64,000 nt of DNA from Candidatus Bathyarchaeota archaeon (GCA_004376295.1 SOJZ01000010.1:1-64000), one strand, 5' to 3'; shown: positions 11,802-60,332, counted from the first letter of the stretch. A program made the numbers and translations. The notes: generated from the sequence alone by a model not told the origin.

Positions 11802-12197
11802 ATGAAGAAACGAAATCTTATTGTAATAGTATCCGTTGTAGTTGTTTCAGCCATTCTTGCTTCATGTGGAGCTTATCTCCTTTATGACTTGTATAGACCA
11901 AGAACCTTCTATGATACGGGGATTAGCGATGAAGAGTATATAGAGATAACAAGTCAAACATTGGAAGCTCAGAAGTTTCTGGAAAAATATCCCAATGCAA
12001 CTATTTATGTTGAGAGAAGTGGTGCCTTAGCAGTAGATTACAGTGTGACCAACAATATCAAAAATAGGCGTTTAAGACTGCGAATTTTTATAGATTGGAG
12101 AACTAATCAGCCTTCAGACAAGTTTATTGATTGTTCGGGAACCTACATCAGAAAGAATCTATTAGAATATTTAGAAACTGAAAGATGTTTTGAATAA
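11802..12197 (+). CDS. Putative lipoprotein or signal-anchored extracellular protein, 131 aa
   Basis: MKKRNLIVIVSVVVVSAILASCGAYLL is a signal sequence with a lipobox-like LASC. The rest is a small soluble extracytoplasmic domain with no recognised family (NATIYVERSGALAVDYS...). Two cysteines near the C-terminus (IDCSG, ERCFE) could form a disulfide. A (GCAT)n motif lies about 60 bp upstream and another 14 bp after the stop. Confidence 0.6.
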   Translation: MKKRNLIVIVSVVVVSAILASCGAYLLYDLYRPRTFYDTGISDEEYIEITSQTLEAQKFLEKYPNATIYVERSGALAVDYSVTNNIKNRRLRLRIFIDWRTNQPSDKFIDCSGTYIRKNLLEYLETERCFE

Positions 12198-14483: not shown

Positions 14484-15256
14484 AGTTCGAGTTCCATTTT
14501 GTCTAGTTCGGTTAACAATTCTGCAAGTCGTTCAACAGCGAGTTTCCAAGCTTTCTCTCCCTTTTCTTTCGAAGCCTTTGTTGGATCGCCTATGACTCCT
14601 GTCTCGCTGATTTCTTTTGTTCGAAATCCCCAGTAAACCTGTGGACCTTTTTCTTTCAATCCAATTTTCGTGTACTTTGACTTTGGAAGCGTAATCGTCG
14701 GTTTTTTAATTCTTTCAGTTACTACGAGTTCTTCACGATTAGCAAGAGTTGTTGAAGTCTCGAATTCGCCAGCGTGTGCATCATACTGTGTTTCAATAAA
14801 TTTTTCAATGAAATCTGGGATCAAGCTTACCGTGTCAACAATCACGAAGGCGCCTGTATCCGCCTTAATACATTGAACTGCCGCGTGTAGTGCTGGTGTG
14901 TTGCCGCCGTGTCCATTTTCAAAAACGACTTTTTTAAACCCGTGCTTGATGAAGCTAACTGCAACTTCGTAGACCAGTTGTTCCAGAGTGTGAGGATGTA
15001 ACGTTGCTGTCCCCGGAAAGTCCATGTGATGAAACGAGATTCCATAATAGATTGGTGGCGCTACCAAGGCACAACCTGACTTCTCGGCTGCTCTCAGAGA
15101 TAGCCAAAAGGCATCGTAGGCATCTGTGTCTAAGGGCAGGTGCGGACCGTGTTGCTCGCAGCTTCCAACTGGAATCACCACTACGTCATGATTTGATAAG
15201 AAGTCTTTGATGTCCGGCCAGGTCAGTTCGCCTAGGTAAAACCTTTGCGTCTTCAT
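14480..15256 (-). CDS. Creatininase-family amidohydrolase
   Basis: The 258-residue protein matches the creatininase/ArfB/MftE fold. Visible metal-site motifs are VIPVGSCEQHGPHLPLDTD (Glu, His, Asp), YGISFHHMDFPGT, FENGHGGNTPA and DAHAGEFETS. Family members hydrolyse cyclic or formamide amide bonds, including creatinine and a formamidopyrimidine in archaeal flavin synthesis (ArfB), so the exact substrate is open. It lies in an operon between a nitroreductase (12 bp upstream) and two small membrane proteins plus an APC permease, which favours uptake and breakdown of a small amide. That context-based role is an inference. Confidence 0.9.
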   Translation of the reverse strand: MKTQRFYLGELTWPDIKDFLSNHDVVVIPVGSCEQHGPHLPLDTDAYDAFWLSLRAAEKSGCALVAPPIYYGISFHHMDFPGTATLHPHTLEQLVYEVAVSFIKHGFKKVVFENGHGGNTPALHAAVQCIKADTGAFVIVDTVSLIPDFIEKFIETQYDAHAGEFETSTTLANREELVVTERIKKPTITLPKSKYTKIGLKEKGPQVYWGFRTKEISETGVIGDPTKASKEKGEKAWKLAVERLAELLTELDKMELEL

Positions 15257-47688: not shown

Positions 47689-48708
47689 TTGGTTGAAGAT
47701 AGCCGTAAGCTTGGTATCTTTGAAAAGTATCTAGCAGCATGGGTTGTTCTATGCATACTGTTGGGACTATTTCTAGCACAATATTTCCCAGTTCTCAGCA
47801 TCACGATCAACAACATGCAGATCGCAGGAATATCAATCCCTATCGGTATATGCCTGTTCTTAATGATGTATCCAGCTCTTCTAAATGTGCAGTTGGACGA
47901 ATTGAAGAAACTATTCCACAATCCTAAGCCAATTATCCTTACACTTGTTTCGAATTGGGTTTTGGCTCCATTGGTAACTGCATTTCTGGCCTATTATTTC
48001 TTGGCTGGACAGAATCAACTAATTGTATCCCTAATACTATTGGGCTCAAGTCCGTGTACAGCCATGGTTTTGGTGTGGGGAGTTCTCGCAGAGGGAAACC
48101 AAGAACAGAACATCATCAATACCAGCCTGAACACGATCACAATCTTGTTCCTGTATGCCCCAGTGGTCTCTCTATTGACTGGTATCCAGAATATTCCGAT
48201 TGACAGGATAGCCCTTGTCATAACCGTGTTTGTTTTTATCGGGATTCCATTGGTTTTAGGTTATTTCTCAAAGAAGTACATCACTGGTAGAAAGGGGGAG
48301 GATTGGTTCCGTAACATCTATAGACCAGCAGTGGGGAAAATAGCGATACTTGCTCTCTTGACCACACTAGTTGTATTATTTTCGTTGAATGGAAATGTGC
48401 TAATACAACATCCCGAGGAAATGATACTCGTTTCTATCCCGTTATTGTTAGGTTTCATCATAGTTGTCGGATTCAACCTATTCGTCACTAAATTTGCGGG
48501 TCTCAGATACGAAGAAGCAATAATATCCGTGATAATAGGTTCTTCCAGCCACTTTGAAATCGCAATTGCGACCGCTATCAGCCTTTATGGATTAGGCTCA
48601 CAAGCTGCACTAGGAACAACAATGGGCTTGTTCTGGGAGGTACCAATCATGCTTAGCCTAGTATATCTAGGCAAAACACTGAACCATAAAGGATTTTGGA
48701 AAAAATGA
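47689..48708 (+). CDS. acr3: Arsenite efflux permease Acr3
   Basis: The 339-residue membrane protein has about 10 helices and the family motifs PIGICLFLMMYPALLNVQLDEL, SNWVLAPLVTAFLAYYF, LLGSSPCTAMVLVWGVLAEGN (with the conserved Cys of Acr3) and GSSSHFEIAIATAISLYG. It extrudes arsenite (and possibly antimonite). TTG 47689 is preceded by GGAGGG. It is divergent from arsR. Together they form a minimal arsenic resistance locus. Confidence 0.93.
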   Translation: MVEDSRKLGIFEKYLAAWVVLCILLGLFLAQYFPVLSITINNMQIAGISIPIGICLFLMMYPALLNVQLDELKKLFHNPKPIILTLVSNWVLAPLVTAFLAYYFLAGQNQLIVSLILLGSSPCTAMVLVWGVLAEGNQEQNIINTSLNTITILFLYAPVVSLLTGIQNIPIDRIALVITVFVFIGIPLVLGYFSKKYITGRKGEDWFRNIYRPAVGKIAILALLTTLVVLFSLNGNVLIQHPEEMILVSIPLLLGFIIVVGFNLFVTKFAGLRYEEAIISVIIGSSSHFEIAIATAISLYGLGSQAALGTTMGLFWEVPIMLSLVYLGKTLNHKGFWKK

Positions 48709-49042
48709 ATGACAGAAGCCTACCTTTAAGAATTGGAGTCAGGAAAATACGCTGCTTTCTTGGTGATCTCAAGTGAGCAAGTTCCAGTTTTCTTACACCA
48801 ATCCTCTCACTTTTGAGCAGTTTCTCTACATGCGTAGCCGAAGCCGCATTCATGCATGCATGTTTTGTCATTACCCTGGAAGGGTATGTGTGGCCCCTCT
48901 CTTGAAGAAGGGAAGCACACATTTCGCGACATGCGCTTGTGTCTGACTGCTGGTCAAAAACTTATTAAAGTTATGAAGCCCGAATCGGTATTCAACATCA
49001 ATCTGTGCATGCATGCGCACGTCACGTATATATGAATGAAGC
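48709..49042. other. Intergenic region with two (GCAT)n motifs
   Basis: CATGCATGCATG at 48851-48862 and an 18-bp alternating tract GTGCATGCATGCGCACGT at 49005-49022, just upstream of the QueG-like reading frame. Otherwise no gene was seen. Confidence 0.5.
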
Positions 49043-49815
49043 TTGGTGTCTGAATGGTGGATAAATCCCGATGGGGGAAGTGTTGAGTTGTCTCACGGAA
49101 ATAGTTCAGTTAGGATGCTAGATCAACTCAAGCGCCTCATTGAAGAAAAATCCATCAAGTGGGGTGCTGACCTCGTCGGGTTTGCGAACTTTGAAAGATT
49201 CAATCGATACCCAGAGGAAAACCGTCCTCCAGAAGGAACTAGACGATCATTGTTTTAGCGATATGGATGGAAGATCCCATTTTGGATCTGTGGCTTCACA
49301 CCCCTTCTTGGAAGAATCAAGGTAAACCAGATCGTGCATTCGAAGATGAAATTCTGCGTGGTGTATCACTACGTCTTTCACTCTTGCTTGAACGAAAAGG
49401 GTATTGGGCCGAACCGGCACCTTATGAACCTGGGCTCTATCTAAAAGAGGCAGGGGCTCTCGCAGGTTTAGGCGTTATTGGCAGAAACAATCTCCTTATT
49501 ACAAAGGAATACGGTCCGCGAATACGCCTACGCGCCATTAATACCAGTGCATCACTGAAACCTGACCCGATTATTGAAAGCCATAGCTACTGCGGCGAAT
49601 GCAACGCATGTGTTGACGCTTGTCCCGCACACGCATTTGACACTGGGAAATATGATAAAGAGGCTTGCCTTAGCTATTGCGAAAACAACCTAATGGAGGT
49701 TTCAAAATACTCTGCGTTATGGTGCATGGAGTGTTCAGACGTCTGTCTCATTGGTGGAAGTAGAGCGCGTTTAAGCAATCCATCAAAGGATGGAGTTGGT
49801 CGAAGCCGGATATGA
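49043..49815 (+). pseudogene. QueG-like Fe-S epoxyqueuosine reductase-type gene, frameshifted
   Basis: The first part (49043-49258) encodes KWGADLVGFANFERFN..RPPEG. The next part continues in another frame: IIVLAIWMEDPILDLW, then LERKGYWAEPAPYEPGLYL and AGLGVIGRNNLLITKEYGPRIRL, and the ferredoxin-type CGECNACVDACPAHAF. The switch occurs close to 49243, where one or two bases seem lost or gained. The family reduces epoxyqueuosine or related substrates with B12 and Fe-S clusters. The sequence might be a true pseudogene, an assembly indel, or programmed frameshifting. It starts near ATG 49121 or TTG 49043. Confidence 0.7.
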
Positions 49816-49820
49816 ATATG

Positions 49821-49836
49821 AATGCATGCATGCATT
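49821..49836. repeat. 16-bp (GCAT)n perfect palindrome
   Basis: AATGCATGCATGCATT is a perfect palindrome starting 5 bp after the stop of the QueG-like gene. It is the longest uninterrupted member of the family. A second copy, TGCATGCATGCA, follows at 49910-49921. Confidence 0.8.
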
Positions 49837-50001
49837 ACAAACAATGTTGTTTTTAGTGGTTCAAAGTTTTAAGACTATGTTGTATGAATGTAGCAACCAC
49901 TAAAATCAATGCATGCATGCAAGTTTTCGACTCACAAGTGCGCTGCTAACTTAACGTTTATATCTGTAAAAGTGAATGGTCGGGCATAGGCAGAGAAGCA
50001 A

Positions 50002-50112
50002 ATGGATAACAAAAAACGCGTAGAAAAGGCCATTCAAAAAAGAGTCAAAACCAGACGATACACAGGCAAATATAAAGGAAGAGGAAAACACAAGCCAAAA
50101 GACCCAGCATAG
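50002..50112 (+). CDS. Small basic protein, 36 aa
   Basis: ATG 50002 reads MDNKKRVEKAIQKRVKTR then RYTGKYKGRGKHKPKDPA. The strongly basic, Gly/Lys/Arg-rich composition is like small nucleic-acid-binding or ribosome-associated peptides. A (GCAT)n motif (GCGCATGCAT, 50118-50127) follows the stop by 5 bp and two others lie within 60 bp. Confidence 0.45.
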   Translation: MDNKKRVEKAIQKRVKTRRYTGKYKGRGKHKPKDPA

Positions 50113-50199
50113 TAAAGCGCATGCATTGCTCTCCAATACAGCATTATACATGACCTTTATGCACATGCATGCTAATTATGAAACTCTATTCAAACTCAA

Positions 50200-50232
50200 T
50201 GTGGCGACATCCCCCACAAACCCCCCTTATTT
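50200..50232 (+). repeat. Hairpin/CCCCC element, copy A
   Basis: TGTGG-CGACATCC-(C)CCACA hairpin followed by AACCCCCC and TTATTTG. It aligns with the copy at 51045. A GCATGCAT motif follows at 50238-50245. Confidence 0.6.
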
Positions 50233-50281
50233 GTGTCGCATGCATCAAGCAACATGAAGCAAAGCTAAGAAATGCTGGTTC

Positions 50282-50392
50282 TTACCAGGTTTGTTTTTTC
50301 CAAACGTTGTATGGACATTGACGCCAACAGTAAGTGGAACCTTTGAAGCTACAACCTTTACATTGCACAGTAGAGAACATGCGAGATTTCAA
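50282..50392 (-). CDS. Mini zinc-finger protein, 36 aa
   Basis: The frame runs from TTG 50392 (or ATG 50380) through VQCKGCSFKGSTYCWRQCPYN to a stop at 50282. CxxC plus two further cysteines make a four-cysteine zinc site. AGGAG lies upstream of the TTG. A very small but protein-like frame in accessory DNA. Confidence 0.5.
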   Translation of the reverse strand: MKSRMFSTVQCKGCSFKGSTYCWRQCPYNVWKKQTW

Positions 50393-50470
50393 AAATCGTT
50401 GCTTCTCCTATGGAGTTCTAAGGTTAGCGGGCTATAAGAATCTTTCAATTTTCCTGTGAGCAATAGTAGA

Positions 50471-50482
50471 TGCATGCATGCA
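50471..50482. repeat. TGCATGCATGCA abutting a stop codon
   Basis: This palindrome ends directly at base 50483, the last base of the minus-strand zinc-ribbon gene's stop codon. Another copy (ATGCATGCATGC, 50781-50792) lies about 50 bp upstream of the same gene's start, so the gene is bracketed. Confidence 0.75.
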
Positions 50483-50728
50483 CTAACTCGATTTCTTCTT
50501 TCTTTTTGCTTTCTTAGTTGTGGTTTTCCCTTTCTCAGTCTTCTTCTGAGTTGTTTTCTTGGATTCTGCAGTTTTCTTTTTTATCGTTGTATCCATGCTT
50601 CTCTCTAGGCTTGCTATTTTGTAGCTATCCGCTGGAGTTCTATCCTTTGGACACATAGTTTTTCGAAGTCCTCTATCCCATACGATTTCTGTTCCACCGC
50701 AATCTGGGCATTGATATGTTTTCCCCAT
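50483..50728 (-). CDS. Zinc-ribbon protein with Lys-rich tail, 81 aa
   Basis: YQCPDCGGTEIVWDRGLRKTMCPKD is a zinc ribbon (three visible cysteines CxxC...C plus possibly a histidine elsewhere). A long basic Thr/Lys-rich tail follows (KKTAESKKTTQKK...KRKKKSS), typical of nucleic-acid-binding tails. Start ATG 50728. It is bracketed by (GCAT)n motifs. Confidence 0.65.
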   Translation of the reverse strand: MGKTYQCPDCGGTEIVWDRGLRKTMCPKDRTPADSYKIASLERSMDTTIKKKTAESKKTTQKKTEKGKTTTKKAKRKKKSS

Positions 50729-51172
50729 TTTCCATCACCTAGTTGATAGTATCGAGTTGTACTAAAGATTTAGGTCCCAAATGCATGCATGCTTTTCATT
50801 CCGAACCTGTTTATAAGTAGCTTGGGAATGGATTCTCAAAGGCTTCGTTCTAAGTTTCTCTAGCTCTTATGGTTAGCACACAATCCAGAGACTTTCGTAG
50901 CAATCCACATGATAGTAATGGATCCGTTTTGTCTGTATGCATGCTTCGATGAAATCAACGGTGTCCACCTGTATCGAAGACGGCGATAACCGCAAAAGTA
51001 CTAGGTTACATTAAAAAAACCAAGGCTTTATAAATAAGCTGTTAAGCGTGGTGACATCTCCACGCTCCCCGCAAAACCCCCTTTTTTCTACTAATGCATG
51101 CATTGAGCGCTGATCAGAGAGTAAAAGCGAAGAATTTATTTGACTGGCATGAGGCATGCATGCTGTTACGCA
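50729..51172. other. Intergenic region with three (GCAT)n motifs and element B
   Basis: Motifs at 50781-50792, 50935-50944 and 51093-51104. TTTATAAGTA near 50808 and TTTATAAATAA at 51027-51037 look like archaeal TATA boxes. The second lies just before the hairpin element at 51045. A small transcribed RNA starting around 51057 is possible. GCATGCATGC also lies 9 bp before the MFS gene start. Confidence 0.5.
51045..51087 (+). repeat. Hairpin/CCCCC-TTTTTT element, copy B
   Basis: Perfect 7-bp stem AGCGTGG/CCACGCT around TGACATCT (51045-51066), then CCCC, GCAAAA, CCCCC and TTTTTT. It is the best-preserved copy of the family and is followed by AATGCATGCATT at 51093-51104. Preceded by a strong TATA-like box at 51027. 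Confidence 0.7.
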
Positions 51173-52246
51173 ATGAAACCAAATTTAATTAGATTTCTCA
51201 CTTTTGCCGCGATCATGTCTTCTTGGATATACATGTCTATTTTTGCTAAGGGCTTGGGAATATCAGATCCGGAGATCGGTTTCATTGTAGCTGCTTATTC
51301 TTTGGCTTTATTCTTGTCCTCTTTTATTTTTGGTCGCGCGTCAGACAGGTATGGTAGGAAACTCTTTTTGGTAGTTGGCTTAGTGTTATCCAGTTTCACA
51401 TTCTTCTTGCAGATATTCGCTCACAATTTCTTAGGTATATTGCTGACTCGCGTTTTAGCCGGTTTTTGTGTAGGCATATTCCCCGCTTCGTTGATTGCAC
51501 ACGTTCAAGAGAACAAAAAGGACCTGTCTAAGTTTTCATCTTTCGGGTCGATGGGTTGGACTTTTGGATTGTTGATTGCAGGTTTGATAGCTTTCTATTT
51601 ATCCATTGAAGGCGTTTTCGTTTTCAGTTCCTTGCTATTCATCCCTGCATTTCTTGTAGCTTCTAAAATGAGGTTTGGTGAACACCATTCCGTAAATGTA
51701 CCTGTCTTGCCTATCAAGATCATAAAGAAGAATCTTCCCCTCTATCTATCTGTTCTTATTCGTCACAGTGGAGCGCATATGATATGGACTTTCTGGCCTC
51801 TTTTTCTGCAAACACTCGGTGCTGACCTGTTCTGGGTTGCTGTCATTCAAGCTATTAACGGTGCAACACAGTTTGTCTTTATGTATACGGTGAGCCAAAA
51901 AATTGGATATGTCTCTTCGATTGCTGGAGGTCTTATACTAGCAAGTGTCACTTTCTTTTCTTTTACTCTAGTAGCGAATTTCTGGCAAATAATGCCAGCA
52001 CAGGTTCTTCTGGGGGTTTCCTGGTCGCTCCTGTATGTAGGTGGATTAAGGTATCTAATGGACAGAAATGTTGAAAAAGCAACAGTCAGCGGTTTGTTCG
52101 ATTCTGCTTTAAGCCTGTCATCTATAATAGGGCCTCTCATTGGAGCTCTTGTAATATCATTCGGTAGCTACAGCACAACAATGTATCTTGCTTCAATACT
52201 AGCCTTCACGGGCTTTCTTTCGTTCAAATTCTCAAAACGAGAATAA
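51173..52246 (+). CDS. Major facilitator superfamily transporter
   Basis: The 357-residue protein has about 12 helices and the MFS motif A (GRASDRYGRKLFLVVGL) after helix 2, with a second symmetrical half. It exports or imports a small solute; substrate unknown. The start ATG 51173 (MKPNLIRFLTF) is preferred over TTG 51140, because it begins right at helix 1 and follows the (GCAT)n motif at 51154-51163. TGCATGCATGCA also follows the stop codon by 5 bp (52252-52263). Confidence 0.88.
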   Translation: MKPNLIRFLTFAAIMSSWIYMSIFAKGLGISDPEIGFIVAAYSLALFLSSFIFGRASDRYGRKLFLVVGLVLSSFTFFLQIFAHNFLGILLTRVLAGFCVGIFPASLIAHVQENKKDLSKFSSFGSMGWTFGLLIAGLIAFYLSIEGVFVFSSLLFIPAFLVASKMRFGEHHSVNVPVLPIKIIKKNLPLYLSVLIRHSGAHMIWTFWPLFLQTLGADLFWVAVIQAINGATQFVFMYTVSQKIGYVSSIAGGLILASVTFFSFTLVANFWQIMPAQVLLGVSWSLLYVGGLRYLMDRNVEKATVSGLFDSALSLSSIIGPLIGALVISFGSYSTTMYLASILAFTGFLSFKFSKRE

Positions 52247-52251
52247 CCACT

Positions 52252-52263
52252 TGCATGCATGCA
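52252..52263. repeat. TGCATGCATGCA motif after MFS stop
   Basis: Starts 5 bp after the stop codon and abuts the hairpin element copy C at 52262. It is a (GCAT)n copy at a gene end. Confidence 0.7.
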
Positions 52264-52300
52264 AAAAGTGGGATTTGCGGGAGTTATCACCAGCACTAAG
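52262..52300 (-). repeat. Hairpin/CCCCC element, copy C
   Basis: GCAAAAAGTGGGATTTGCGGG followed by AGTTATCACCAGCAC. On the minus strand it reads TGCTGG-TGATAACT-CCCGCA then AAATCCCAC, so TGC/GCA and GG/CC pair around a small loop as in copies B and E. Confidence 0.55.
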
Positions 52301-52362
52301 TGGGTTCGAATACTCCTAACAGATAACATTTAAGCGATAGTTTGGGTTAAGAATGCACCTTC

Positions 52363-53451
52363 TTGGAAGGAATCGATTTGACTTCAAAGGTAGCCATTGT
52401 CAAGTTTGATGAAAATGCAGAAGCGAGATCATTGAAGGAAGCTCTGCGTCTAATTGGTGGAATAGACGATTTGAACACTTCTAAGAGAACAATAGTTGTG
52501 AAAGTTGGAGTTTTTAGTCATAAAGCGGAAAACCATACATCGGTTAATGTGGTTGACGCTATTGTTAATAGCTTTGATAAAGCGCCAGAGATTTTTCTGG
52601 TCGAATCAGATAATTACCAAGGTAGGGGTTTGGAGAGACTTCAAGTTTGGAAGCAACTTTTCACTAATAGAGTGATGCCATTTAGCCTTTCAGACGACGC
52701 GAATGTTATGGACGTAAGGCTTGCTGGCCAAGAAATGAAGTTGTCACATATACTCTTCAAGCCCAACATCTTCCTTGACACGCACATTCTACGTTCTTTC
52801 GAGAGAGGAAGTATTCTGAAAAACCTTTTCGGATGTATTCCAACATCAAAGAAAGTTAAGTTTCATAAGATGGAGATCTTTTGCCCACTTCTCGCTGACA
52901 TTTTTGAGACAATAGGCGGAATAGATCTTGCAGTGACGGATGGCACTTACTTTTGGAGTGGAGCAGGCAACTTGCCCGTGCACATGAATACTCTCATAGT
53001 GGGTAGAGATGCCGTTGCTGTAGAGACGGTTGGAGCTGTACTTGCTGGATTAGAGCCTAAGAAGATGCCTGTTATACAAGAGTTCGTGAAAAGAGGTCTC
53101 GGAGAAGGTAATATAGAAAATATCCAGATCTTGGGGGCTTCTCTTGAAAGTCTCAAAGAGGAAATCATAACCGCTAAAAAGACTCAAAAGATGCGCACCC
53201 AAGCCCGTGCATTAGGACCTCAAACGTGGGGAGGAAAATCTTATCACGCACTTGAAAGCTTAATCCAAGACGGATTCTTCAAACTGCCTAACAAGAGAAC
53301 AAGAAAAGACGTATCTAAGGCATTAGAAGCTAGAGGTTTATCGACTGAAGGCAAGGAACAAAAAATTGCGAATTCTCTTTCTCGAAGAGTAAAGAAGGGA
53401 GTCTTGAAATCAGCCAAGGGTCCAGATGGATGGGTTTACTGGACAGAATAG
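52363..53451 (+). CDS. DUF362 domain protein, 362 aa
   Basis: The DUF362 core (about 10-240) has IVVKVGVFSHKAENHTSVNVVDA, EIFLVESDNYQGRG, LLADIFETIGGIDLAVTDGT and AVAVETVGAVLAGLEPKKMP. Family members are poorly characterised and often associated with Fe-S proteins or sulfur/carbon metabolism; no cysteine cluster is present here. The C-terminal ~90 residues look like a winged-helix (TRKDVSKALEARGLSTEG, GVLKSAKGPDGWVYW). Start TTG 52363. Function unknown. Confidence 0.8.
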   Translation: MEGIDLTSKVAIVKFDENAEARSLKEALRLIGGIDDLNTSKRTIVVKVGVFSHKAENHTSVNVVDAIVNSFDKAPEIFLVESDNYQGRGLERLQVWKQLFTNRVMPFSLSDDANVMDVRLAGQEMKLSHILFKPNIFLDTHILRSFERGSILKNLFGCIPTSKKVKFHKMEIFCPLLADIFETIGGIDLAVTDGTYFWSGAGNLPVHMNTLIVGRDAVAVETVGAVLAGLEPKKMPVIQEFVKRGLGEGNIENIQILGASLESLKEEIITAKKTQKMRTQARALGPQTWGGKSYHALESLIQDGFFKLPNKRTRKDVSKALEARGLSTEGKEQKIANSLSRRVKKGVLKSAKGPDGWVYWTE

Positions 53452-53466
53452 CAGCGTTAGCTTAAC

Positions 53467-53492
53467 GAAAAAAAGGGGGTTTGTCGGTGCTT
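53467..53492 (-). repeat. Hairpin/CCCCC-TTTTTT element, copy D (partial)
   Basis: GAAAAAAAGGGGGTTTGTCGGTGC lies between the stop of the DUF362 gene and the stop of the RAM-domain gene. It keeps the T run and CCCCC/GACAAAC part but not a full stem, so it is the weakest copy. Confidence 0.45.
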
Positions 53493-53503
53493 GTTGGAAA
53501 TGG

Positions 53504-53779
53504 CTATTTCCAGTTGATGTATTCTTTTATTGGGGTTGTTGGCACCGTATGTGCTTCGAGAACGCCTGGGATTGGGCGTATTTTGTCATTTACGAAATCG
53601 TGGGCGTAGTCTTGGTTTTCAGCTTCAAACCATATTGCTAGGTCCCAGTTTCCGAAACAGTTCATGGTGTAGTACAGCCTGACTCCATGGTAGGGTTGCT
53701 CTGGAAGTTTTCTCAGCTTCTGTGTGATGTCTTTGGTTCTCGTTGGATTCGTTTTCAGCAAAACGAAATATTTGTTCAT
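53504..53779 (-). CDS. Stand-alone Lrp/AsnC RAM-domain protein
   Basis: The 91-residue protein (MNKYFVLLKTNPTRTKDITQ, NWDLAIWFEAENQDYAHDFV) matches the ligand-binding RAM domain of Lrp regulators without the DNA-binding HTH. Such proteins bind amino acids and can modulate Lrp partners. Convergent with the DUF362 gene. No binding partner is obvious nearby. Confidence 0.7.
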   Translation of the reverse strand: MNKYFVLLKTNPTRTKDITQKLRKLPEQPYHGVRLYYTMNCFGNWDLAIWFEAENQDYAHDFVNDKIRPIPGVLEAHTVPTTPIKEYINWK

Positions 53780-54135
53780 GCTTTTTTTCTTCCTTTTACT
53801 GATGCAAACGGATAGGAGATTTAGCGTTCTTATCTCTTATGAAGTCTGAGTAACTATTCTGAATCATTTTGTAAGGCATGGATGCATGCATGAAAATGGT
53901 TAAGGAATATCTATGGAAGATGAAGGGATGAGGGCGTATACATGGTATGGGTTCTCATGGAAAATGGTGAACCATGCATGCGCATAGCTCTCTCCTCGCT
54001 CCCTCAGACATTTAATGATGAATGTTGATAGCTAAGAGTCTTGTGAATGATTCTTCTGGAGGATTCTTCTGGAAGATTTAACATGCATGCAGCATTCGCA
54101 AGGATAATTAAGGATTAGATACTTTTGAAGGTTAT
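53780..54135. other. Intergenic region with (GCAT)n motifs and tandem 12-mer
   Basis: ATGCATGCAT at 53882-53891, CATGCATGCGCAT at 53973-53985 and CATGCATGCA at 54083-54092. GATTCTTCTGGA occurs twice in tandem (54049-54060, 54062-54073). No gene supported. Confidence 0.5.
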
Positions 54136-54528
54136 GTGAAAACTGATATGATCTTTTCTATCAGTGAAGAGTTGCTCAAGGCGATTTTTGAAGGCGCAAG
54201 AAGGCTTTATCCAAGGGAAACAATTTTGCTTCTTCGAGGCGAAAAGAAGAAGAATTTGATTATGGTTTCCGAGCTTGTTGTTCCTCCACTCGCAACCTAT
54301 GGGCGAAGTTTCGCCAACATTCCTCTTCACATGTTACCCATGGATTTCTCCATCGTTGGAACTGTACATTCCCATCCATCTGGAAATCTAACACCTTCCA
54401 CAGCAGACCTCAACCATTTCTTTGGAAGTGCACTCATGATCGTAGGTTTTCCCTTTGCAGAAAAAAGAAACACTGCAGTATACAACCGGAATGGAGAGAA
54501 GTTAACATTACAAATAACGAAAGCGTAG
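54136..54528 (+). CDS. JAMM/MPN metalloprotease domain protein
   Basis: The zinc motif HSHPSGNLTPSTAD (HxHP-x7-D) at about residue 75-90 identifies a JAMM isopeptidase-type domain of about 130 residues, with an acidic residue earlier in RGEKKKNL. Such enzymes cleave ubiquitin-like modifiers from targets (as SAMP desampylases in haloarchaea). An E1-like enzyme is also in this window at 37544, so a small ubiquitin-like system may exist; the modifier itself was not seen. Start GTG 54136 or ATG 54148. Its end is antisense to a Cys-rich frame. Confidence 0.85.
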   Translation: MKTDMIFSISEELLKAIFEGARRLYPRETILLLRGEKKKNLIMVSELVVPPLATYGRSFANIPLHMLPMDFSIVGTVHSHPSGNLTPSTADLNHFFGSALMIVGFPFAEKRNTAVYNRNGEKLTLQITKA

Positions 54529-54638
54529 AGAAGATATCTTAGGTAGAAATGCGTGCATGTGGAACATAGTCCGGTGGTTCCGCATTCTTCGCAGAGTGAT
54601 GCTCTACAACACATGCAGATTCGGAATGTGTATTTCAT
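54526..54638 (-). CDS. Possible Cys-rich mini-protein antisense to the JAMM gene end
   Basis: MKYTFRICMCCRASLCEECG and then LCSTCTHFYLR contain seven cysteines in about 30 residues, spaced as in zinc fingers. The frame has no early stop and continues antisense across the end of the JAMM gene, which makes a true gene uncertain; only the first part is proposed. A TGCATGCATGCA motif overlaps the most upstream possible ATG (54651-54662). Confidence 0.35.
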
Positions 54639-54723
54639 ATAAATTGACAATGCATGCATGCAGAGAAAATTAATATCCCTTTTTGTTGTATTTTATGTTC
54701 CGATGCAGAGGAGTGAGTAAGAG

Positions 54724-55260
54724 GTGCCAAAGAAAGATAGTGACGTGCAAAAGGATGAACGTTCGAGAAAGAAAGCAGAGGAAGCGCTTGACGAAAAGAC
54801 TATGAAAAAATTGGGGAAATTGAGCCAAAAAACCATGAAAAAACTGGCAAAATTGGGTGAGCTTCCTCTTTTGTACGAAGACTATGTCAATATAGCTGTA
54901 CCACAATCACTCGCTAAGAAATCTGCGAAACATGAGAAAAGCAAAGGTGAAGATCTTCTGCGCAACTTTGAAGAGAACGTCTTTGATTGGGATGACGAAG
55001 CCACAAAGAAGCCAGCCTTTGACGCCTTCAAGAATGTATTTGAGGGTTTTGATAAGCTGCGGAGAACGTTCGACGCTAAGCAAAAAGAAATCGTTGGTGA
55101 AACTGACTTTGGGAGGAACATGGCAACGATGGTTGCATTGATGCGACAGCAGATTGAAGCTTCGGAGCGAGCAGCAAGGTCACAGAGTAAACGGTTCTAT
55201 ATTTCCCTGACGGTAGCTGCCATATCAGTGATAGCTGCGGTCATTAAGATCCTGCTCTGA
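54724..55260 (+). CDS. Charged coiled-coil protein with C-terminal membrane anchor, 178 aa
   Basis: N-terminal helices are charged (SDVQKDERSRKKAEEALDEK, KTMKKLGKLSQKTMKK). The middle is acidic (EENVFDWDDEATKKP) and the C-terminus has one transmembrane helix (FYISLTVAAISVIAAVIKILL). It likely sits on the membrane with its coiled coil in the cytoplasm. Start GTG 54724. No family recognised. Confidence 0.6.
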   Translation: MPKKDSDVQKDERSRKKAEEALDEKTMKKLGKLSQKTMKKLAKLGELPLLYEDYVNIAVPQSLAKKSAKHEKSKGEDLLRNFEENVFDWDDEATKKPAFDAFKNVFEGFDKLRRTFDAKQKEIVGETDFGRNMATMVALMRQQIEASERAARSQSKRFYISLTVAAISVIAAVIKILL

Positions 55261-55422
55261 TGTTTGCTGTTAGGAACATAGCTCATGCACACGCTCTTGT
55301 CTTCTATTATCTCTAAGATTTTTGGCGCGTGCGCAAAACTGCAGGCTCTTCTTTCCAAACCATGCTGTCATTACCGAAAATATATTAACTAAATGTTTGA
55401 ATAGCGACTCTAAGTGTTAGAA

Positions 55423-55614
55423 ATGAAATGCATGTTTAATCCAGGGATAGAGTGCACTGTTTACGGTGTCCTGAAAGAAGTAGTAGAGCGTCCTGATCCA
55501 TACCAGATTCTCCAGCATGCGTGTCCCCTGTGTCCAGATCGACCCTTTCCAGAAAGGCCCTTTCCAGATCGGCCTCTTCCGGAACGTCCAAGAAGACGCC
55601 TGCGGAAAAAATAG
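55423..55614 (+). CDS. Small protein with CxxC and Pro-Arg-rich tail, 63 aa
   Basis: ATG 55423 (MKCMFNPGIECTVYGVLKE) is preferred over an upstream TTG. ACPLCPDRP is followed by the imperfect repeats ERPFPDRPLPERP, an unusual [DE]RPxP repeat ending in a basic RRRLRKK. Four cysteines suggest zinc binding. Family unknown; the codon usage looks coding. Confidence 0.6.
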   Translation: MKCMFNPGIECTVYGVLKEVVERPDPYQILQHACPLCPDRPFPERPFPDRPLPERPRRRLRKK

Positions 55615-55652
55615 ATTCTTTTTTTTCGTGCGCGCATAAGTGAGCGTGAAAA

Positions 55653-55814
55653 TCAGTAGGTTGATCCGCGCGCTTGTTCAATCATCTGTTTTGCTAAGCA
55701 ACCTGGACATACCGGGAGTGGCACTATCTGCCATGACCCGTCCTCAAATTTCATTTTCATCACATCTTTATTGGTTAAGCGGGCACCACATTTTGCACAT
55801 TTTCTTCTTTTCAT
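55653..55814 (-). CDS. Mini zinc-ribbon protein, 53 aa
   Basis: The preferred start is ATG 55814 (MKRRKCAKCGARLTNKD). CAKCG and VCPGCLAKQM form two CxxC pairs. The middle is MKMKFEDGSWQIVPLP. One of several mini ribbons in this accessory region. A CGCGCG tract lies just downstream. Confidence 0.65.
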   Translation of the reverse strand: MKRRKCAKCGARLTNKDVMKMKFEDGSWQIVPLPVCPGCLAKQMIEQARGSTY

Positions 55815-55930
55815 CAGAAGTTTACTCCTTCCCGCACGAGGATATCTTAAAAAAGAAGATGTAAAAACTTTGTTGCACAAAATGAAGTCGGAAATTCGAT
55901 TCTAGCGCACGCAGGTCGATTTCTTGTTTT

Positions 55931-56015
55931 CCCATCTTGCCGCGTGCTCCCACATGAATTCACGCGCGAACCGTGTGTTTAATGGTCTCTAGGGAAAAAG
56001 TCGAGGCGGCTACGT
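55931..56015 (-). pseudogene. Second, truncated copy of the integrase start region
   Basis: About 85 bp match 41209-41292, including the start codon context GTGGGAGCACGCGGCAAG. After the first ~7 codons the reading frame diverges (GKQEIDLRALESNF) so nothing else of the integrase remains. It marks a second relic of an integrated element in the same orientation 14.7 kb from the first. Confidence 0.65.
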
Positions 56016-56040
56016 GAGCACTAAGTTCTTGTTATGGTCT

Positions 56041-56667
56041 TCATAGTCGCGGCATTAACATCGGCACGTTTTTCTTATAGTCTTCATATTCGTTGCCGAA
56101 TTCTTTGATTAATTCCTCTTCTTCCTTTTTTGAGATTAGATAAATGAGTGCCAACAGAATCGGAGTGAAAAGCATAGAATACGAAACAGAAAATAGGATT
56201 GATATTCCAATGTGCGCTAAAATCCATCCAAAATATTGAGGATGTCTCACAATCGAATAGGCTCCTGTAGTTTCCAATTTTCGTGGTGCACCATGAGTTT
56301 CAGCTACCTTTAATCCGGTTGCTCTCACAGCCCAAATGGCGATCCAAGCTCCCGGTATTATCAGGGATAAAGAGACCACCAAATTAAGAAAGGGGATCAA
56401 AATGCCAGCAACTGGAAAAGTTAAATTCGAAAAAATGGGAATAGTGAACTTTGGCTGAGGTGAAATCCACAACCCTACCAAAAATACGAACTCCATTGTC
56501 CCTGAAACTGCACCTAAGACTTCGCCGATTCTGGCACCTCTTTCCTTGCCGTACTTCTTCTGAAGTTTGACATGTTCGACTGATTTAAAATGAAGGATTA
56601 TTGCTATGAACATACATGTTGCACAGACAAAAAACCAAATGTACATTTCAATCACGTTTCGGTTCAA
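56041..56667 (-). CDS. Isoprenylcysteine/phospholipid methyltransferase-type membrane protein
   Basis: The 208-residue protein has about five membrane helices. The family signature (GAYSIVRHPQYFGWILAHIGISILF) and a C-terminal EELIKEFGNEYEDYKKNVP motif are those of ICMT/NnrU-like SAM-dependent methyltransferases. Substrate is unknown. Start TTG 56667 or ATG 56646. It stands alone, upstream of a (GCAT)n site at 56821-56832. Confidence 0.8.
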   Translation of the reverse strand: MNRNVIEMYIWFFVCATCMFIAIILHFKSVEHVKLQKKYGKERGARIGEVLGAVSGTMEFVFLVGLWISPQPKFTIPIFSNLTFPVAGILIPFLNLVVSLSLIIPGAWIAIWAVRATGLKVAETHGAPRKLETTGAYSIVRHPQYFGWILAHIGISILFSVSYSMLFTPILLALIYLISKKEEEELIKEFGNEYEDYKKNVPMLMPRL

Positions 56668-56820
56668 TTCTTCGTAAGATACATGTTTGGATATTTAACC
56701 TGATATGGCTACTTTTCACATTGATATCCCAACTTTTACTTGTGTTTTCTGAACACTGGGCACATTCTATGGTGGTGAAGTATTCAAAGCCGGCTTCTGT
56801 GAGTTCGCAAGCTTTTTCAA

Positions 56821-56832
56821 TGCATGCATGCA
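56821..56832. repeat. TGCATGCATGCA motif
   Basis: Perfect 12-bp palindrome between the methyltransferase gene and the SMP-like gene. Confidence 0.7.
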
Positions 56833-56950
56833 AAGGCTGTAAAAAATCGGTTGATGGGAACTAACTATCGTGGGAAATAGGCGAAATCATTATCTTCCTG
56901 TCTATCTCTATGTTATACTATGTTATAGATTGATTACGGAGGTGAACTTA

Positions 56951-57073
56951 ATGGGGAAAGAGTCAAAAATGGATGCAAAAGCTGCTGCAAGGGTTCAATC
57001 TCGTGCAGATAAAACGGGAAAACATCAGGATTTTAAGGCAAGAGCTCAGAGGGCTGCTGCCAAGAATAAATAG
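56951..57073 (+). CDS. Small SMP (seed-maturation-protein-like) motif protein, 40 aa
   Basis: ATG 56951 with GGAGGTGA 5 bases upstream defines the start. The product (MGKESKMDAKAAARVQSRAD and KARAQRAAAKNK) resembles the AARIQS...ARAQSAAARN pattern of the SMP motif, which is found in small stress-associated proteins. The stop codon TAG leads directly into GCATGCAT (57073-57080). Confidence 0.65.
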   Translation: MGKESKMDAKAAARVQSRADKTGKHQDFKARAQRAAAKNK

Positions 57074-57155
57074 CATGCATTCTCAGTTGAGTGCATATAA
57101 AAATATGTGTCCAGAAGAAACGATGCATGCATGTTTACCTATTTTCATCATGTGA

Positions 57156-57530
57156 TTAACAGGAAGCCTTTAATCTTATTTTTGCTGGACGATTTCTGTC
57201 AATCTTGGCAATTTCAGCTAACTCTAGTAATGGGGCTACATACGAAGCTAAACTTGTTCCATGAGAAAATCTCTTTAAAAAGGTATCAAGTGAAAGCTCA
57301 TCAGAAATCTCATGAACAGCTCCAATTCTAATCCAACCTTTTCCTCTCAGAAAATTGGGTGCTTCTTCAAGAGCTGAAACGGGAATTTTAAGTGTGGAAG
57401 GCTTTTTGCCAGTTTCGATTGAAACCCTTTCACTATCAATATGGAGGACTTTGAATTGTTTGCCCGATGAGGTTTCTAAGGTAAAGGGAAAACGAGGTAT
57501 CTTCAGGGTAATCTTAATCATTACCGACAT
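57156..57530 (-). CDS. Hypothetical protein, 124 aa
   Basis: An N-terminal beta segment (MIKITLKIPRFPFTLETSSGK) and a helical C-terminal half (GTSLASYVAPLLELAEIAKID) without recognised motifs. No membrane helix. Codon use appears coding. ATGCATGCAT lies at 57123-57132, 24 bp past its stop. Confidence 0.6.
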   Translation of the reverse strand: MSVMIKITLKIPRFPFTLETSSGKQFKVLHIDSERVSIETGKKPSTLKIPVSALEEAPNFLRGKGWIRIGAVHEISDELSLDTFLKRFSHGTSLASYVAPLLELAEIAKIDRNRPAKIRLKASC

Positions 57531-57888
57531 TTTGATCAGTCCATATTTTCACAATAAATCACTTAAGCTTTTACCGTTTCTGTGTATGCATGCTGAATGC
57601 GCGTACATGCGTTTGAACGCGACGTACATATCTGGAATGTGCTCCGCAAAATGGTTCGAGAAATCCTACAAAAAACAGAAAAAATGGGGGTTTGCGGGAG
57701 ATATCTCCACGCTCATGCATATCTAAACTTGCATGTATGCGTTTAATGCCCCTCTCTATATTACAGACCACATACGCATAGACAAACAACAAAATTCAAA
57801 GAACACATACACTGATGCTTTACCTACTAAGGGCCAGACGAAGAAAATGCATGATAGACAGAACGTTGTTATCGTTTTGTTTCAGCTT
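57531..57888. other. Intergenic region with hairpin element copy E
   Basis: GTATGCATGC at 57584-57593, AAAAAATGGGGG at 57679-57690 and the hairpin element at 57679-57716. No gene supported; a CCCCC-TTTTTT family copy and a (GCAT)n site lie on either side of a GAACGCGACG stretch. Confidence 0.5.
57679..57716 (-). repeat. Hairpin/CCCCC-TTTTTT element, copy E
   Basis: AAAAAATGGGGG TTTGCGGG AGATATCT CCACGCTC. On the minus strand GCGTGG-AGATATCT-CCCGC then AAACCCCCATTTTTT. GGAGATATCTCC is also palindromic. Nearly the same structure as copy B, with the T/C mismatch compensated. Confidence 0.6.
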
Positions 57889-58419
57889 TCAGTCAATGTT
57901 AAAAATCCTTTTGAAAACTTCTCTCTTCACAACCCTGTACGCGGGGCTATAGAATCTTCGATACCGTTCTGAGTGATGATAAAGAGGATAGTTTTCTTTC
58001 TCCACCTTTTTGTCAAAATCTTCAAGGCTAGACTCGTCAAAGTTTAACCTGCCAGCTTCGACCAGACTCTTAAACCGATTCCATAACTTTAAGAAAGCTT
58101 TTTGAGTTCCCTTTGGCTCCTTAGCCGAAGTTACCATAGCTGAAAACAGTTTGTCCGAAGACAACCCTCGCATCTTGAACGGCCTCAAATTAACCCTCAC
58201 CATCACATTGTCAACTGAAATGTTTTCAATCAAAGACTCATCAGAGAACTTCTGCATCTCCAACGTGGATAATTCCTCTTCAAGATACCGTTTAGCCTTA
58301 TCATGCAAAATATGTTGAATCCCAAAAACACTTTGAAAAAACATCTTATAGACATCAACCACTTCCAAATCAGGTCTCAACCTTTGATGCCACCTTACCA
58401 GTTCTTCCAAGCTGCCCAA
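57889..58419 (-). CDS. Conserved hypothetical protein, 176 aa
   Basis: Helical protein with the motif VFGIQHILHDKAKRYLEEEL, a central RPFKMRGLSSDKLFSAM and a C-terminal YPLYHHSERYRRFYSPAYRVV; the HHSExY...SPAYR pattern is shared with a widespread uncharacterised family. Start TTG 58419 (MGSLEELVRWH); the open frame extends further upstream without a canonical start. Function unknown. Confidence 0.65.
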   Translation of the reverse strand: MGSLEELVRWHQRLRPDLEVVDVYKMFFQSVFGIQHILHDKAKRYLEEELSTLEMQKFSDESLIENISVDNVMVRVNLRPFKMRGLSSDKLFSAMVTSAKEPKGTQKAFLKLWNRFKSLVEAGRLNFDESSLEDFDKKVEKENYPLYHHSERYRRFYSPAYRVVKREVFKRIFNID

Positions 58420-58534
58420 ACACTTCCCCGTTTTATCGGCAATATGGACGAAATCTCTTATTTTCCTATCCTTAGTTGAAATCAGTATTCAAACGTCATA
58501 AGACTTTTGCATAAGAACTAACCATCTTTTTTGT

Positions 58535-58906
58535 ATGACTCAGAAAAAGACGACTCCGAAACTTTACGAAGAGTACATGAGAGATAATGTTCAAGAGTAT
58601 CGACACAGAGAAGTCCTTGCATACTTGACAATTAACATGGGAATCGTTTTCTTGGTTGGAGGATTGCTGATATCAGTTACTTTGGCAGAGAACTTAAGCT
58701 GGCTTCTGATTTTCCCATATGAGCCAAACAGTTACACCACCAGTTTCATAGGAACCATTTTGTGCGTTTTCGGGTTTGTTTTGATATCAGGCGGATTCAT
58801 ATTAGCGTTCCATTATGACAGAGAAAAAATGTGGTTTTCAAAGAAGCTGAAAGAGTCCAACGTGGTGGTAGAGGAACTCCTGCGTAAAGGAAAGAAAAAC
58901 TATTAG
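58535..58906 (+). CDS. Two-helix membrane protein, 123 aa
   Basis: ATG 58535. A soluble charged N-terminus (MTQKKTTPKLYEEYMRDN) is followed by helices at about 33-53 and 68-92 and a C-terminal charged helix (KMWFSKKLKESNVVVEELLRKG). No family recognised. Confidence 0.6.
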   Translation: MTQKKTTPKLYEEYMRDNVQEYRHREVLAYLTINMGIVFLVGGLLISVTLAENLSWLLIFPYEPNSYTTSFIGTILCVFGFVLISGGFILAFHYDREKMWFSKKLKESNVVVEELLRKGKKNY

Positions 58907-59050
58907 AATAGAGAAGTTTCGTTTGCCGAAGAAGAATCATTTCGATGCAAATTGCAGATCGGCATAATCACAGTTTTCTCGGACTAATGTGTGCAGACAC
59001 TATTTTGGTGTATGGACAACCCGCTTTTGAGGCTTACCTATGTGAGTCTA

Positions 59051-59130
59051 TTCAGTCTTTGAGGTATTCCACGTTTATGGGCCCGTAAGACGTGAGCATG
59101 CATGCATCAGACGTAGAAACAAAATGCAGA
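59051..59130 (+). pseudogene. Degenerate mini zinc-ribbon fragment
   Basis: The codons VFEVFHVYGPVRREHACI match VYEVFHVYEPIRCEKCG of the 7276 protein over about 15 residues, at both DNA and protein level. The expected cysteines are replaced and no start or stop arrangement fits. It looks like a decayed paralogue. Confidence 0.55.
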
Positions 59131-59155
59131 CCACAAACAAAACGGACCACCCCCC

Positions 59156-59254
59156 TAGGTAGGGGGGTCTATAATAGAGAGAATGAGTAACTGCAAAAAA
59201 TTATAGGGAGGTCTAGAAAGAGAGAGACATACCCAAACAACGTGACAAACACAA
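59156..59254 (+). repeat. GGGTCTATAAGAGAG leader repeats R1 and R2
   Basis: R1 (59156-59185) and R2 (59201-59247) share TAGGG..GTCTA-TA...AGAGAG. R2 continues with ACATACCCAAACAACGTGACA, and the same order recurs at 59705-59754 (R3). R2 ends about 78 bp before the eL38 start. The TCTATAA box resembles a promoter element, so R2 may carry the eL38 promoter. Confidence 0.6.
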
Positions 59255-59324
59255 AAACCACAACAAATAAAACAAGCAAAACCACACAAATCACTGCAAC
59301 CTAGAAAAAGGAGAACAAGCACAT

Positions 59325-59519
59325 ATGCCGAAAGAAATTTTTGACATAGACGAATTCATAGAAATCTCCAGACGCGCAGAATACTGCGACATAAAAAGAC
59401 TAGAAACAATGGTGAAACTGAAACTTCGAACACCAAAAAAACTCTACACACTAAAAGTCGAACCAATAAAGGCAGAAGAAATCGTGAAAAAACTAAACTG
59501 CGAAATCCGCGAAATCTAG
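59325..59519 (+). CDS. eL38-like ribosomal protein, 64 aa
   Basis: MPKEIFDIDEFIEISRRAEY, MVKLKLRTPKKLYTLKV and KAEEIVKKL follow the eukaryotic eL38 pattern ([45 protein letters not shown]). It would be a small 50S-subunit protein found in some TACK archaea. An AAGGAGAAC Shine-Dalgarno sequence lies 10 bases before ATG 59325. The gene stands alone between the leader repeats and the 10-bp tandem array. Confidence 0.8.
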   Translation: MPKEIFDIDEFIEISRRAEYCDIKRLETMVKLKLRTPKKLYTLKVEPIKAEEIVKKLNCEIREI

Positions 59520-59540
59520 GTACATTTTGAAGAAGTCCGC

Positions 59541-59634
59541 ATCTTTCGCTATCTTTTCGTATCTTTTCCTATCTTTCTATATCTTTTCGTATCTTTCTGC
59601 ATCTTTTCCCATCTATTCCCATCTATTCCTATCG
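59541..59634. repeat. 10-bp tandem repeat (ATCTTTTCST), about nine units
   Basis: Consecutive ten-base units begin ATCTTTCGCT, ATCTTTTCGT, ATCTTTTCCT, ATCTTTCTAT and continue to ATCTATTCCT (59541-59630), with a last ATCG. The period matches one helical turn, so a curved-DNA or phased-site effect is possible. It follows the eL38 stop and precedes R3. Confidence 0.85.
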
Positions 59635-59704
59635 TGGGATAAACCGTTTTCAAGCTTATTTTCAAAAAACCAACGAAAAACAAGCTCTGTGAAAAACAAA
59701 AAAA

Positions 59705-59754
59705 ATATAGGGGGGGTCTATAAGAGAGAGATACACTTCAACAACGTGACAAAA
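59705..59754 (+). repeat. Leader repeat R3
   Basis: ATATAGGGGGGGTCTATAAG followed by AGAGAGATACACTTCAACAACGTGAC closely matches R2 (59201-59247). It flanks eL38 plus the tandem array on the other side, 30 bp from the 3' end of the minus-strand archaemetzincin gene. Confidence 0.65.
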
Positions 59755-59786
59755 CCTCAATCAACCACACAAAAGCATGCTAAGCG

Positions 59787-60332
59787 TCACAATCGTTTCA
59801 AACATTCTACAACCAAACCGCGACACCTTTCACAAAAAACAGATCTCTTACGGTCAGTATCATCAATGTTATTAGAAAAAAACATAACACACAACGGATC
59901 GTGACAATGCACTAACCCCAACGTATGCCCAACCTCATGAACAGCCTCCTTAACAGAACGCTCAACCAAAAGCCCACTATCCGGCAAGTCTCCATAAAAC
60001 TCAGATCTAAGCCTACACAACGATATTACCGCAGCTCTTCCAGGACATTCCGCTTCTCCAAAAACAAAATTCAACCGCGGCACATAAAGATCCACATCAG
60101 TCACCCCCAAAACTCTATCAACCCCAGACGATTCAACATACCTCCAGATCCTCGACAAAATACTACTAGAAAGAAACTGACCTCTCACCACATTATACGC
60201 ATCTCGAGGCATCACCATCATCCGCTCAAAAATATCACAAATAGTTCTAGGGAAAACCTCACACAAACCAACTTGAACGCTTCTTATGACTTCTACGTCT
60301 ACACACCCAACACGCAAAACCACTATTCTCAT
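59787..60332 (-). CDS. amzA: Archaemetzincin (zinc peptidase)
   Basis: HEVGHTLGLVHCHDPLCVM is the archaemetzincin motif (HExxHxxGxxHCx4CxM), followed by the CERC pair. The N-terminal half holds the conserved FPRTICD region. The start is best at ATG 60332 (MRIVVLRVGC), because the longer reading overlaps the nuclease gene. About 181 residues, a normal length. The cellular substrate is not known. Confidence 0.93.
   Translation of the reverse strand: MRIVVLRVGCVDVEVIRSVQVGLCEVFPRTICDIFERMMVMPRDAYNVVRGQFLSSSILSRIWRYVESSGVDRVLGVTDVDLYVPRLNFVFGEAECPGRAAVISLCRLRSEFYGDLPDSGLLVERSVKEAVHEVGHTLGLVHCHDPLCVMFFSNNIDDTDRKRSVFCERCRGLVVECLKRL

What the first reader, a model, noticed from the sequence alone, without database searches (positions are those of the whole stretch)
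50200..57716. Five-copy hairpin element with CAAACCCCC and, in most copies, a T run
Copies at 50200 and 51045 (plus) and 52262, 53467 and 57679 (minus) share a short stem around GACATC/GATATC followed by a CAAA-CCCCC tract, with a T run in copies B, C, D and E. Copies B and E show compensating pairs (GCGTGG/CCACGC and GCGtGG/CCcGC). This resembles a transcribed hairpin with a terminator-like tail, or a mobile non-coding element. All copies are confined to the accessory region, and most lie next to a (GCAT)n site.
Basis: seen in the sequence. Interest (0 to 1): 0.75.

Follow-up and report, generated by a model that had tools for sequence, protein, structure and literature searches.

The report
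Boundary tag of archaeal mobile DNA
The repeated sequence is not a small RNA hairpin but a roughly 31-letter DNA tag that marks one end of mobile gene packages inserted beside tRNA and other essential genes across Bathyarchaeia, so it lets us find where such packages landed and piled up.

Summary
Four of the five copies (A, B, C, E) are real members of one family, TGGNGATATCNCCCGCAAANCCCCYTTTTTT. D shares only the C-rich/T-run half. The host genome has about 25-30 copies. The family occurs, patchily, in 83 of 201 sampled genomes of the class; 22 of 23 exact matches in named genomes are Bathyarchaeia.

It is not an RNA hairpin: 103 aligned copies show no compensatory pairing, and the would-be loop GATATC is among the most conserved parts.

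It is the inner boundary of integrated mobile DNA. Upstream lies a 15-30 bp fragment of a target gene (tRNA 3' or 5' end, mcm 3' end, rpl15e or tbp promoter). In the resolved cases an intact target lies 1.5-12 kb downstream in the same orientation, several times beside a tyrosine-integrase remnant. T-arm-to-palindrome spacing is 10-11 bp in 23 of 27 tRNA cases. Units stack head to tail. A relative has the empty rpl15e site, and synteny breaks fall on the element. In the window, copy B follows an integrase C-terminus plus tbp-promoter fragment; copy C follows a decayed T-arm.

Likely function: a shared att-proximal protein-binding site plus a terminator-like tail. Catalysis and both roles are inferred.

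The parts
50202..50235 (+). Copy A of the element (tail with interrupted T run; no target fragment recognised upstream)
   Evidence: R1 match E = 6.8e-7 in the whole genome; member of the training set of R1
50945..50989 (+). C-terminal remnant of a tyrosine integrase (FDEINGVHLYRRRR, stop 50987-50989)
   Evidence: 98% identical 93-bp repeat of C21:1910-2002, where it is the end of a longer integrase remnant (PF00589 match at C21:1649-1813)
51020..51037 (+). Fragment of the tbp promoter with TATA box (CCAAGGCTTTATAAATAA), read as the att segment of copy B
   Evidence: only other copy in the genome (2 mismatches over the 20-mer) is at C21:1985-2004, in front of the intact tbp gene (PF00352 E = 1e-61)
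51049..51089 (+). Copy B of the element, insertion variant (palindrome 51049-51061, tail 51067-51087)
   Evidence: R1 match E = 3.1e-5; not in the training set
52260..52292 (-). Copy C of the element
   Evidence: R1 match E = 3.2e-7
52303..52312 (-). Decayed antisense tRNA T-arm (TATTCGAACC) 11 nt before the palindrome of copy C
   Evidence: direct sequence; obeys the 10-11 nt rule
53468..53484 (-). D: C-run/T-run tail only, not a full copy; probably an ordinary gene-end tail
   Evidence: only model positions 17-33, E = 0.087; about 40 nt after a stop codon
57675..57709 (-). Copy E of the element
   Evidence: R1 match E = 1.2e-9; lies in 55883-57832, which does not align with same-genus genome G003 although both flanks do

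Best explanation
The element is the att-proximal inner end of a large family of site-specifically integrated mobile DNA segments in Bathyarchaeia. In a circular segment the order would be: target-identical attP (15-30 bp), 10-11 bp, palindrome TGGNGATATCNCCCG, C-rich/T-run tail CCCGCAAANCCCCYTTTTTT, cargo genes and, in autonomous versions, a tyrosine integrase. Recombination at the target leaves [target fragment]-[element]-cargo-(integrase)-[restored intact target], and repeated events stack units head to tail. SHOWN: this order, the direct repeats, the fixed spacing, integrase remnants beside the intact target, one empty site, and synteny breaks at the element. INFERRED: that tyrosine integrases catalyse the event; that the palindrome is a protein-binding arm or half-site of attP used with many different targets; that the C-run/T-run half is a transcription terminator, originally of the integrase gene. 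Most copies are integrase-less units or scars.
For: 27 of 124 copies have an antisense tRNA T-arm within 60 nt upstream against 0.48 expected, 23 of them at 10-11 nt from the palindrome. Direct repeats with an intact target downstream: tRNA-Gly 26 nt, mcm 3' end 18 nt, tRNA 3' end in G009, tRNA-Pro 5' end, a tRNA 30 nt with an integrase remnant between cargo and tRNA. Head-to-tail array ending in integrase remnant and intact tRNA in L232; integrase remnant before the second att in L134. Empty rpl15e site in G001 and synteny blocks ending at elements. Presence/absence of a 2.9-kb segment with the switch inside the element. Window copy B preceded by integrase end plus tbp promoter, whose partner at C21 runs into the intact tbp gene. 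A viral contig carries T-arm att plus element at its integrase start. Patchy distribution inside genera.
Against: Most copies (97 of 124) have no recognisable T-arm and most have no detected second att, so they are read as scars or as untested targets. Integrase genes are fewer than elements (for example 2 in G001) and those beside arrays are mostly C-terminal remnants. No excised circle was seen. The G038/G050 switch lies inside the element, not in the att, so homologous recombination between copies also acts. All genomes are metagenome assemblies, and the copy set was gathered partly with the motif itself and contains some orthologous copies.
Confidence: 0.85

Rival explanations
1. It is only a lineage-specific transcription terminator, carried along because integrase and cargo genes need one next to att.
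For: It ends in a C-run/T-run; several integrase genes end in such tails without the palindrome (L224, L221, L208, L209); C3-T5-type tails follow 4.1% of stops against 0.9% at random positions; some copies lie 10-40 nt after stops.
Against: It does not explain the palindrome or its fixed 10-11 nt spacing to the target fragment; about 40% of copies follow a gene pointing the other way; the distribution is patchy within genera, unlike a housekeeping signal.
Confidence: 0.08
2. A transcribed small RNA or RNA hairpin.
For: Copy B folds well (z = -3.2).
Against: No covariation in 103 copies and the loop is among the most conserved parts; mean fold z about -0.5 (DNA parameters); no Rfam match in the window.
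Confidence: 0.02
3. An integron: the element is an attC-like site of gene cassettes moved by an integron integrase.
For: Head-to-tail gene units separated by a conserved site and lacking a full-length integrase.
Against: Integron attC core boxes in 1 of 124 copies; no single-strand folding signal; integrases far below the integron-integrase cut-offs; targets are many host genes, not one attI.
Confidence: 0.02
4. One end of a transposon or casposon with terminal inverted repeats; the direct repeats would be target-site duplications.
For: Direct repeats flank segments, and tRNA 3' ends are a known casposon target (own knowledge).
Against: No inverted copy at the far end of resolved units (L132, L137, L147, L060, L134); repeat length varies from 15 to 30 bp; tyrosine-integrase remnants sit at the far end. 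cas1 genes were not searched for.
Confidence: 0.03

Closest known systems
pNOB8-type and SSV-type archaeal tyrosine-integrase elements at tRNA genes (review PMC8371274; 1.8-kb recombinase element with tRNA fragments in Caldiarchaeum, PMC3293823)
   Same: Target fragment and restored target as direct repeats, integrase at one end, tandem integration and integrase loss.
   Different: Here a common 31-bp tag sits 10-11 bp inside the element whatever the target (tRNA 3' or 5' ends, mcm, promoters), in a whole class; the passages of both papers that I searched do not mention it.
Integrons with gene-cassette arrays, including archaeal ones (PMC9668308)
   Same: Stacked gene units with a conserved site per unit, many arrays without a nearby intact integrase.
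   Different: No attC boxes or attC fold, no IntI, sites aimed at several essential host genes.
Tycheposons and other cargo-only islands at tRNA genes; CIMEs and accretion (IMEs reviewed in PMC5704250; tycheposons cited from own knowledge, the original paper is not held)
   Same: Small cargo units at tRNA genes, integrase-less relatives, tandem accretion.
   Different: Different domain of life; I know of no conserved att-proximal tag shared across targets.
Bathyarchaeia viruses and proviruses (PMC10848311, PMC11705971)
   Same: Same hosts; proviruses bounded by integrase, direct repeats and tRNA; one IMG/VR contig here carries the tag at its att site.
   Different: The passages I searched mention neither this motif nor integrase-less arrays.

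Membership tests
Tyrosine-integrase integrative elements (pNOB8/SSV-like) | Direct repeat of a target end, with the intact target at one border | tested here: met
   L132, L147, L231, L232, L060, G009 tRNA cases; not detected for most single copies
Tyrosine-integrase integrative elements (pNOB8/SSV-like) | Tyrosine integrase encoded at a border | tested here: inconclusive
   Remnants at the border in L231, L232, L134 and C21, intact next to att in a viral contig; many units have none
Tyrosine-integrase integrative elements (pNOB8/SSV-like) | Empty site in a relative | tested here: met
   rpl15e site in G001
Tyrosine-integrase integrative elements (pNOB8/SSV-like) | Excised circle and integrase-catalysed recombination | not testable with these tools
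   needs reads or biochemistry
Integron | attC core boxes (GTTRRRY / RYYYAAC) and single-strand fold | tested here: not met
   1 of 124 copies; mean fold z -0.5 to -0.8
Integron | IntI-type integrase | tested here: not met
   TIGR02249 20-75 bits against a cut-off of 265 for three integrases
Structured RNA / Rfam family | Compensatory pairing or a family match | tested here: not met
Hairpin (intrinsic) terminator | G+C-rich stem directly before a T run | tested here: not met
   terminator scan finds none at A, B, C or E; palindrome and T run are 12 or more nt apart
Casposon / TIR transposon | Inverted copy at the other end of the unit | tested here: not met
   both-strand model searches

The most novel reading that the evidence does not exclude
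Bathyarchaeia have a non-integron gene-cassette system: a class-wide common half-site (the palindrome) is recognised by many related tyrosine integrases or by a shared partner protein, while only the other half-site is swapped to aim at different essential genes. Integrase-less gene units, satellites and viruses would all carry the same tag and be captured and stacked by enzymes supplied in trans.
Probability: 0.35. Interest if true: 0.8.

Novelty: new variant of a known kind. Interest (0 to 1): 0.62.

Why it matters
Bathyarchaeia are abundant and mostly uncultured, and gene flow in them is hard to follow in draft genomes. A 31-bp tag at a fixed distance from the target fragment gives a way to map integration events, read out cargo and empty sites, and link viruses and integrase-less units to their targets from sequence alone. 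If the palindrome is a shared recombination half-site, it would explain how integrase-less gene units accumulate in arrays outside integrons, and that is directly testable.

Tried and rejected
RNA hairpin or small RNA: rejected. Guide RNA against tRNA, split or permuted tRNA, and a primer-binding-site idea (fragments begin at the CCA complement): dropped, because fragments occur in sense and antisense, come also from mcm and promoters, and resolved cases have an intact direct copy downstream. Plain terminator: kept only for the tail module. Integron attC: tested, not met. Casposon/TIR: no inverted partner found. Searches for att partners of A, C and E gave nothing convincing.

Full report
CHECK OF THE OBSERVATION. 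Copies A, B, C and E are real; D is not a full member. A sequence-only covariance model (R1, 16 copies; A, C and E of the window among them) finds 26 matches at E < 0.01 in the own 1.89-Mb draft genome, with same-orientation clusters on contigs C16, C19, C23 and C31. Of 61 genomes searched (own and relatives), 55 have matches at E <= 0.1, up to 47 per genome. Of 201 genomes drawn from the class, 83 have matches at E <= 0.001, with strong differences inside single genera. An exact pattern scanned over one genome each of 84,980 named species returned 23 stretches, 22 of them Bathyarchaeia (including one labelled miscellaneous Crenarchaeota group-6, an older name of that class); the one Oscillibacter hit is likely chance.

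ANATOMY. In 103 copies of standard spacing the consensus is T-GG-N-GA[T/C][A/G]TC-N-CC-CGCAAA-N-[C/T]CCC-[C/T]-TTTTTT. The T before GG (93%) was not fixed by my scan and is conserved; flanks beyond are nearly random. Eleven further Bathyarchaeia copies, B among them, carry an insertion between the palindrome and CCCGCAAA. The list holds three more entries: two weak matches on the opposite strand of real copies, and the Oscillibacter record. The element thus has two modules: a palindrome TGGNGATATCNCCCG and a tail CCCGCAAANCCCCYTTTTTT.

NOT AN RNA HAIRPIN. The only variable position inside the palindrome shows 34% Watson-Crick pairs against 32% expected, outer positions pair no more than expected, and the middle (GATATC), which would be the loop, is among the most conserved parts. 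Mean fold z-scores are -0.5 to -0.8. The B hairpin depends on its insertion. Invariance of positions used in the scan is partly selection by the scan; the free positions and flanks are not affected.

WHAT LIES UPSTREAM. Of 124 distinct copies (some orthologous), 27 have an antisense tRNA T-arm within 60 nt upstream (0.48 expected from shuffles), 23 of them at exactly 10 or 11 nt from the end of GAACC to the palindrome. Other copies follow a tRNA 5' end in sense, the 3' end of mcm, a promoter, or the 3' end of a tyrosine-integrase remnant. In window copy C the sequence TATTCGAACC lies 11 nt before the palindrome.

WHAT LIES DOWNSTREAM. In resolved cases the upstream fragment recurs as part of the intact target, in the same orientation, beyond the cargo: tRNA-Gly in L132 (26 nt, 2.7 kb), mcm in L147 (18 nt, 2.9 kb), a promoter in L137 (15 nt, 2 kb), tRNA 3' and 5' ends in G009, a tRNA in L231 (30 nt). 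Over 60 copies, repeats scoring 14 or more occur 7 times direct-downstream, against 3 direct-upstream, 0 inverted-downstream and 1 inverted-upstream; the direct-upstream ones are partly the same arrays seen from the second unit. In L231 the order is att fragment, element, two cargo genes, integrase remnant, intact tRNA with the same att. L232 holds three att-element units with tRNA fragments (one decayed) and a weaker fourth element, each followed by cargo, then an integrase remnant and the intact tRNA. L134 has five elements in one orientation, then an integrase remnant at 14772-14891 and a second att at 14909.

EMPTY SITE AND BREAKPOINTS. Own-genome stretch C31:136000-149500 (L060) has five elements between a diphthamide-synthase gene and rpl15e. 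In same-genus genome G001 the two flanks (query 1-1016 and 13126-13501) are adjacent: the empty site. In G003 the left block ends at 1089, three bases past the first element (1054-1086), and the aldo/keto-reductase gene near the right end aligns in G001 and G003 from 11842 or 11861, that is from the last element (11844-11877). The att GCTGAAAAGRTTTATT is present at left and right ends and, slightly diverged, before the third element, again about 11 nt from the palindrome. In another family of the order a 2.9-kb segment is present in G038 and absent in G050, and the change from left to right flank happens inside the 30-bp element; this may be site-specific or homologous recombination.

THE WINDOW. 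Copy B is the most telling. The 93 bp before it (50945-51037) recur at C21:1910-2002 with 98% identity. They hold the last 14 residues and stop of a tyrosine integrase (FDEINGVHLYRRRR) and then promoter sequence with a TATA box. At C21 the same integrase remnant runs into an intact tbp gene. Copy B thus reads as an internal junction of units once stacked at the tbp promoter. Copy E lies in a 1.95-kb stretch (55883-57832) that does not align with G003 although both flanks do. No att partner was found for A, C or E.

INTEGRASES AND VIRUSES. Three integrases from the set match Pfam PF00589 or the archaeal XerA model but score below the cut-offs of XerA and of the integron integrase. Several integrase genes end in C-run/T-run tails without the palindrome (L224, L221, L208, L209), which suggests that the tail module is a terminator; such tails are also enriched after stops in general. 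A 13.3-kb IMG/VR contig carries a T-arm att and the element next to the start of its integrase.

MECHANISM. Best reading: attP = target-identical core + 10-11 bp + palindrome + tail. Near-constant spacing across unrelated targets argues that the palindrome works with the recombination site as DNA, for instance as the mobile element's own half-site or arm site bound by the integrase or a partner. The variable distance of the tail argues that it does something separate, most likely transcription termination. The catalyst and both roles are inferred, not shown.

NOVELTY. Tyrosine-integrase elements at tRNA genes, their tandem integration and integrase loss are known in archaea (PMC8371274), and a recombinase-bearing 1.8-kb repeat with tRNA fragments is described in Caldiarchaeum (PMC3293823). 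Bathyarchaeia viruses and proviruses with integrases are described (PMC10848311, PMC11705971). In an open-access library that lacks most subscription journals, and reading passages rather than whole papers, I found no description of this tag or of these integrase-less arrays.

Noticed in passing
window 48000-60000: TGCATGCA-type 8-mers are strongly concentrated here (81 of 124 in the window); they are mildly enriched near the element but are a separate intergenic motif.
   Followed up: partly
window 50471-50791: A small-gene region repeated at 98-99% identity on contigs C8 and C41 of the same genome and at 94% in G003: probably mobile cargo.
   Followed up: partly
window 49823-49922: A roughly 100-bp repeat found at many places in this genus (own contigs C16, C5, C19, C2; G003).
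   Followed up: no
L224 1072-2103: An integrase frame in G009 runs into the antisense of a complete tRNA-Gly gene at its 5' end, so tRNA and integrase are directly adjacent.
   Followed up: partly
L274 3952-4940: 13.3-kb IMG/VR contig: integrase frame begins inside the tRNA-like att, with the element on the other side of the att.
   Followed up: partly
L138 9678-12650 versus L131 1292-1323: 2.9-kb segment present in one genome and absent in another, with the switch inside the element.
   Followed up: yes
window 51140-52246: A transporter gene (MFS) is flanked by copies B (+) and C (-) in opposite orientation; its homologues in G001 and G002 had no reported element match nearby.
   Followed up: partly
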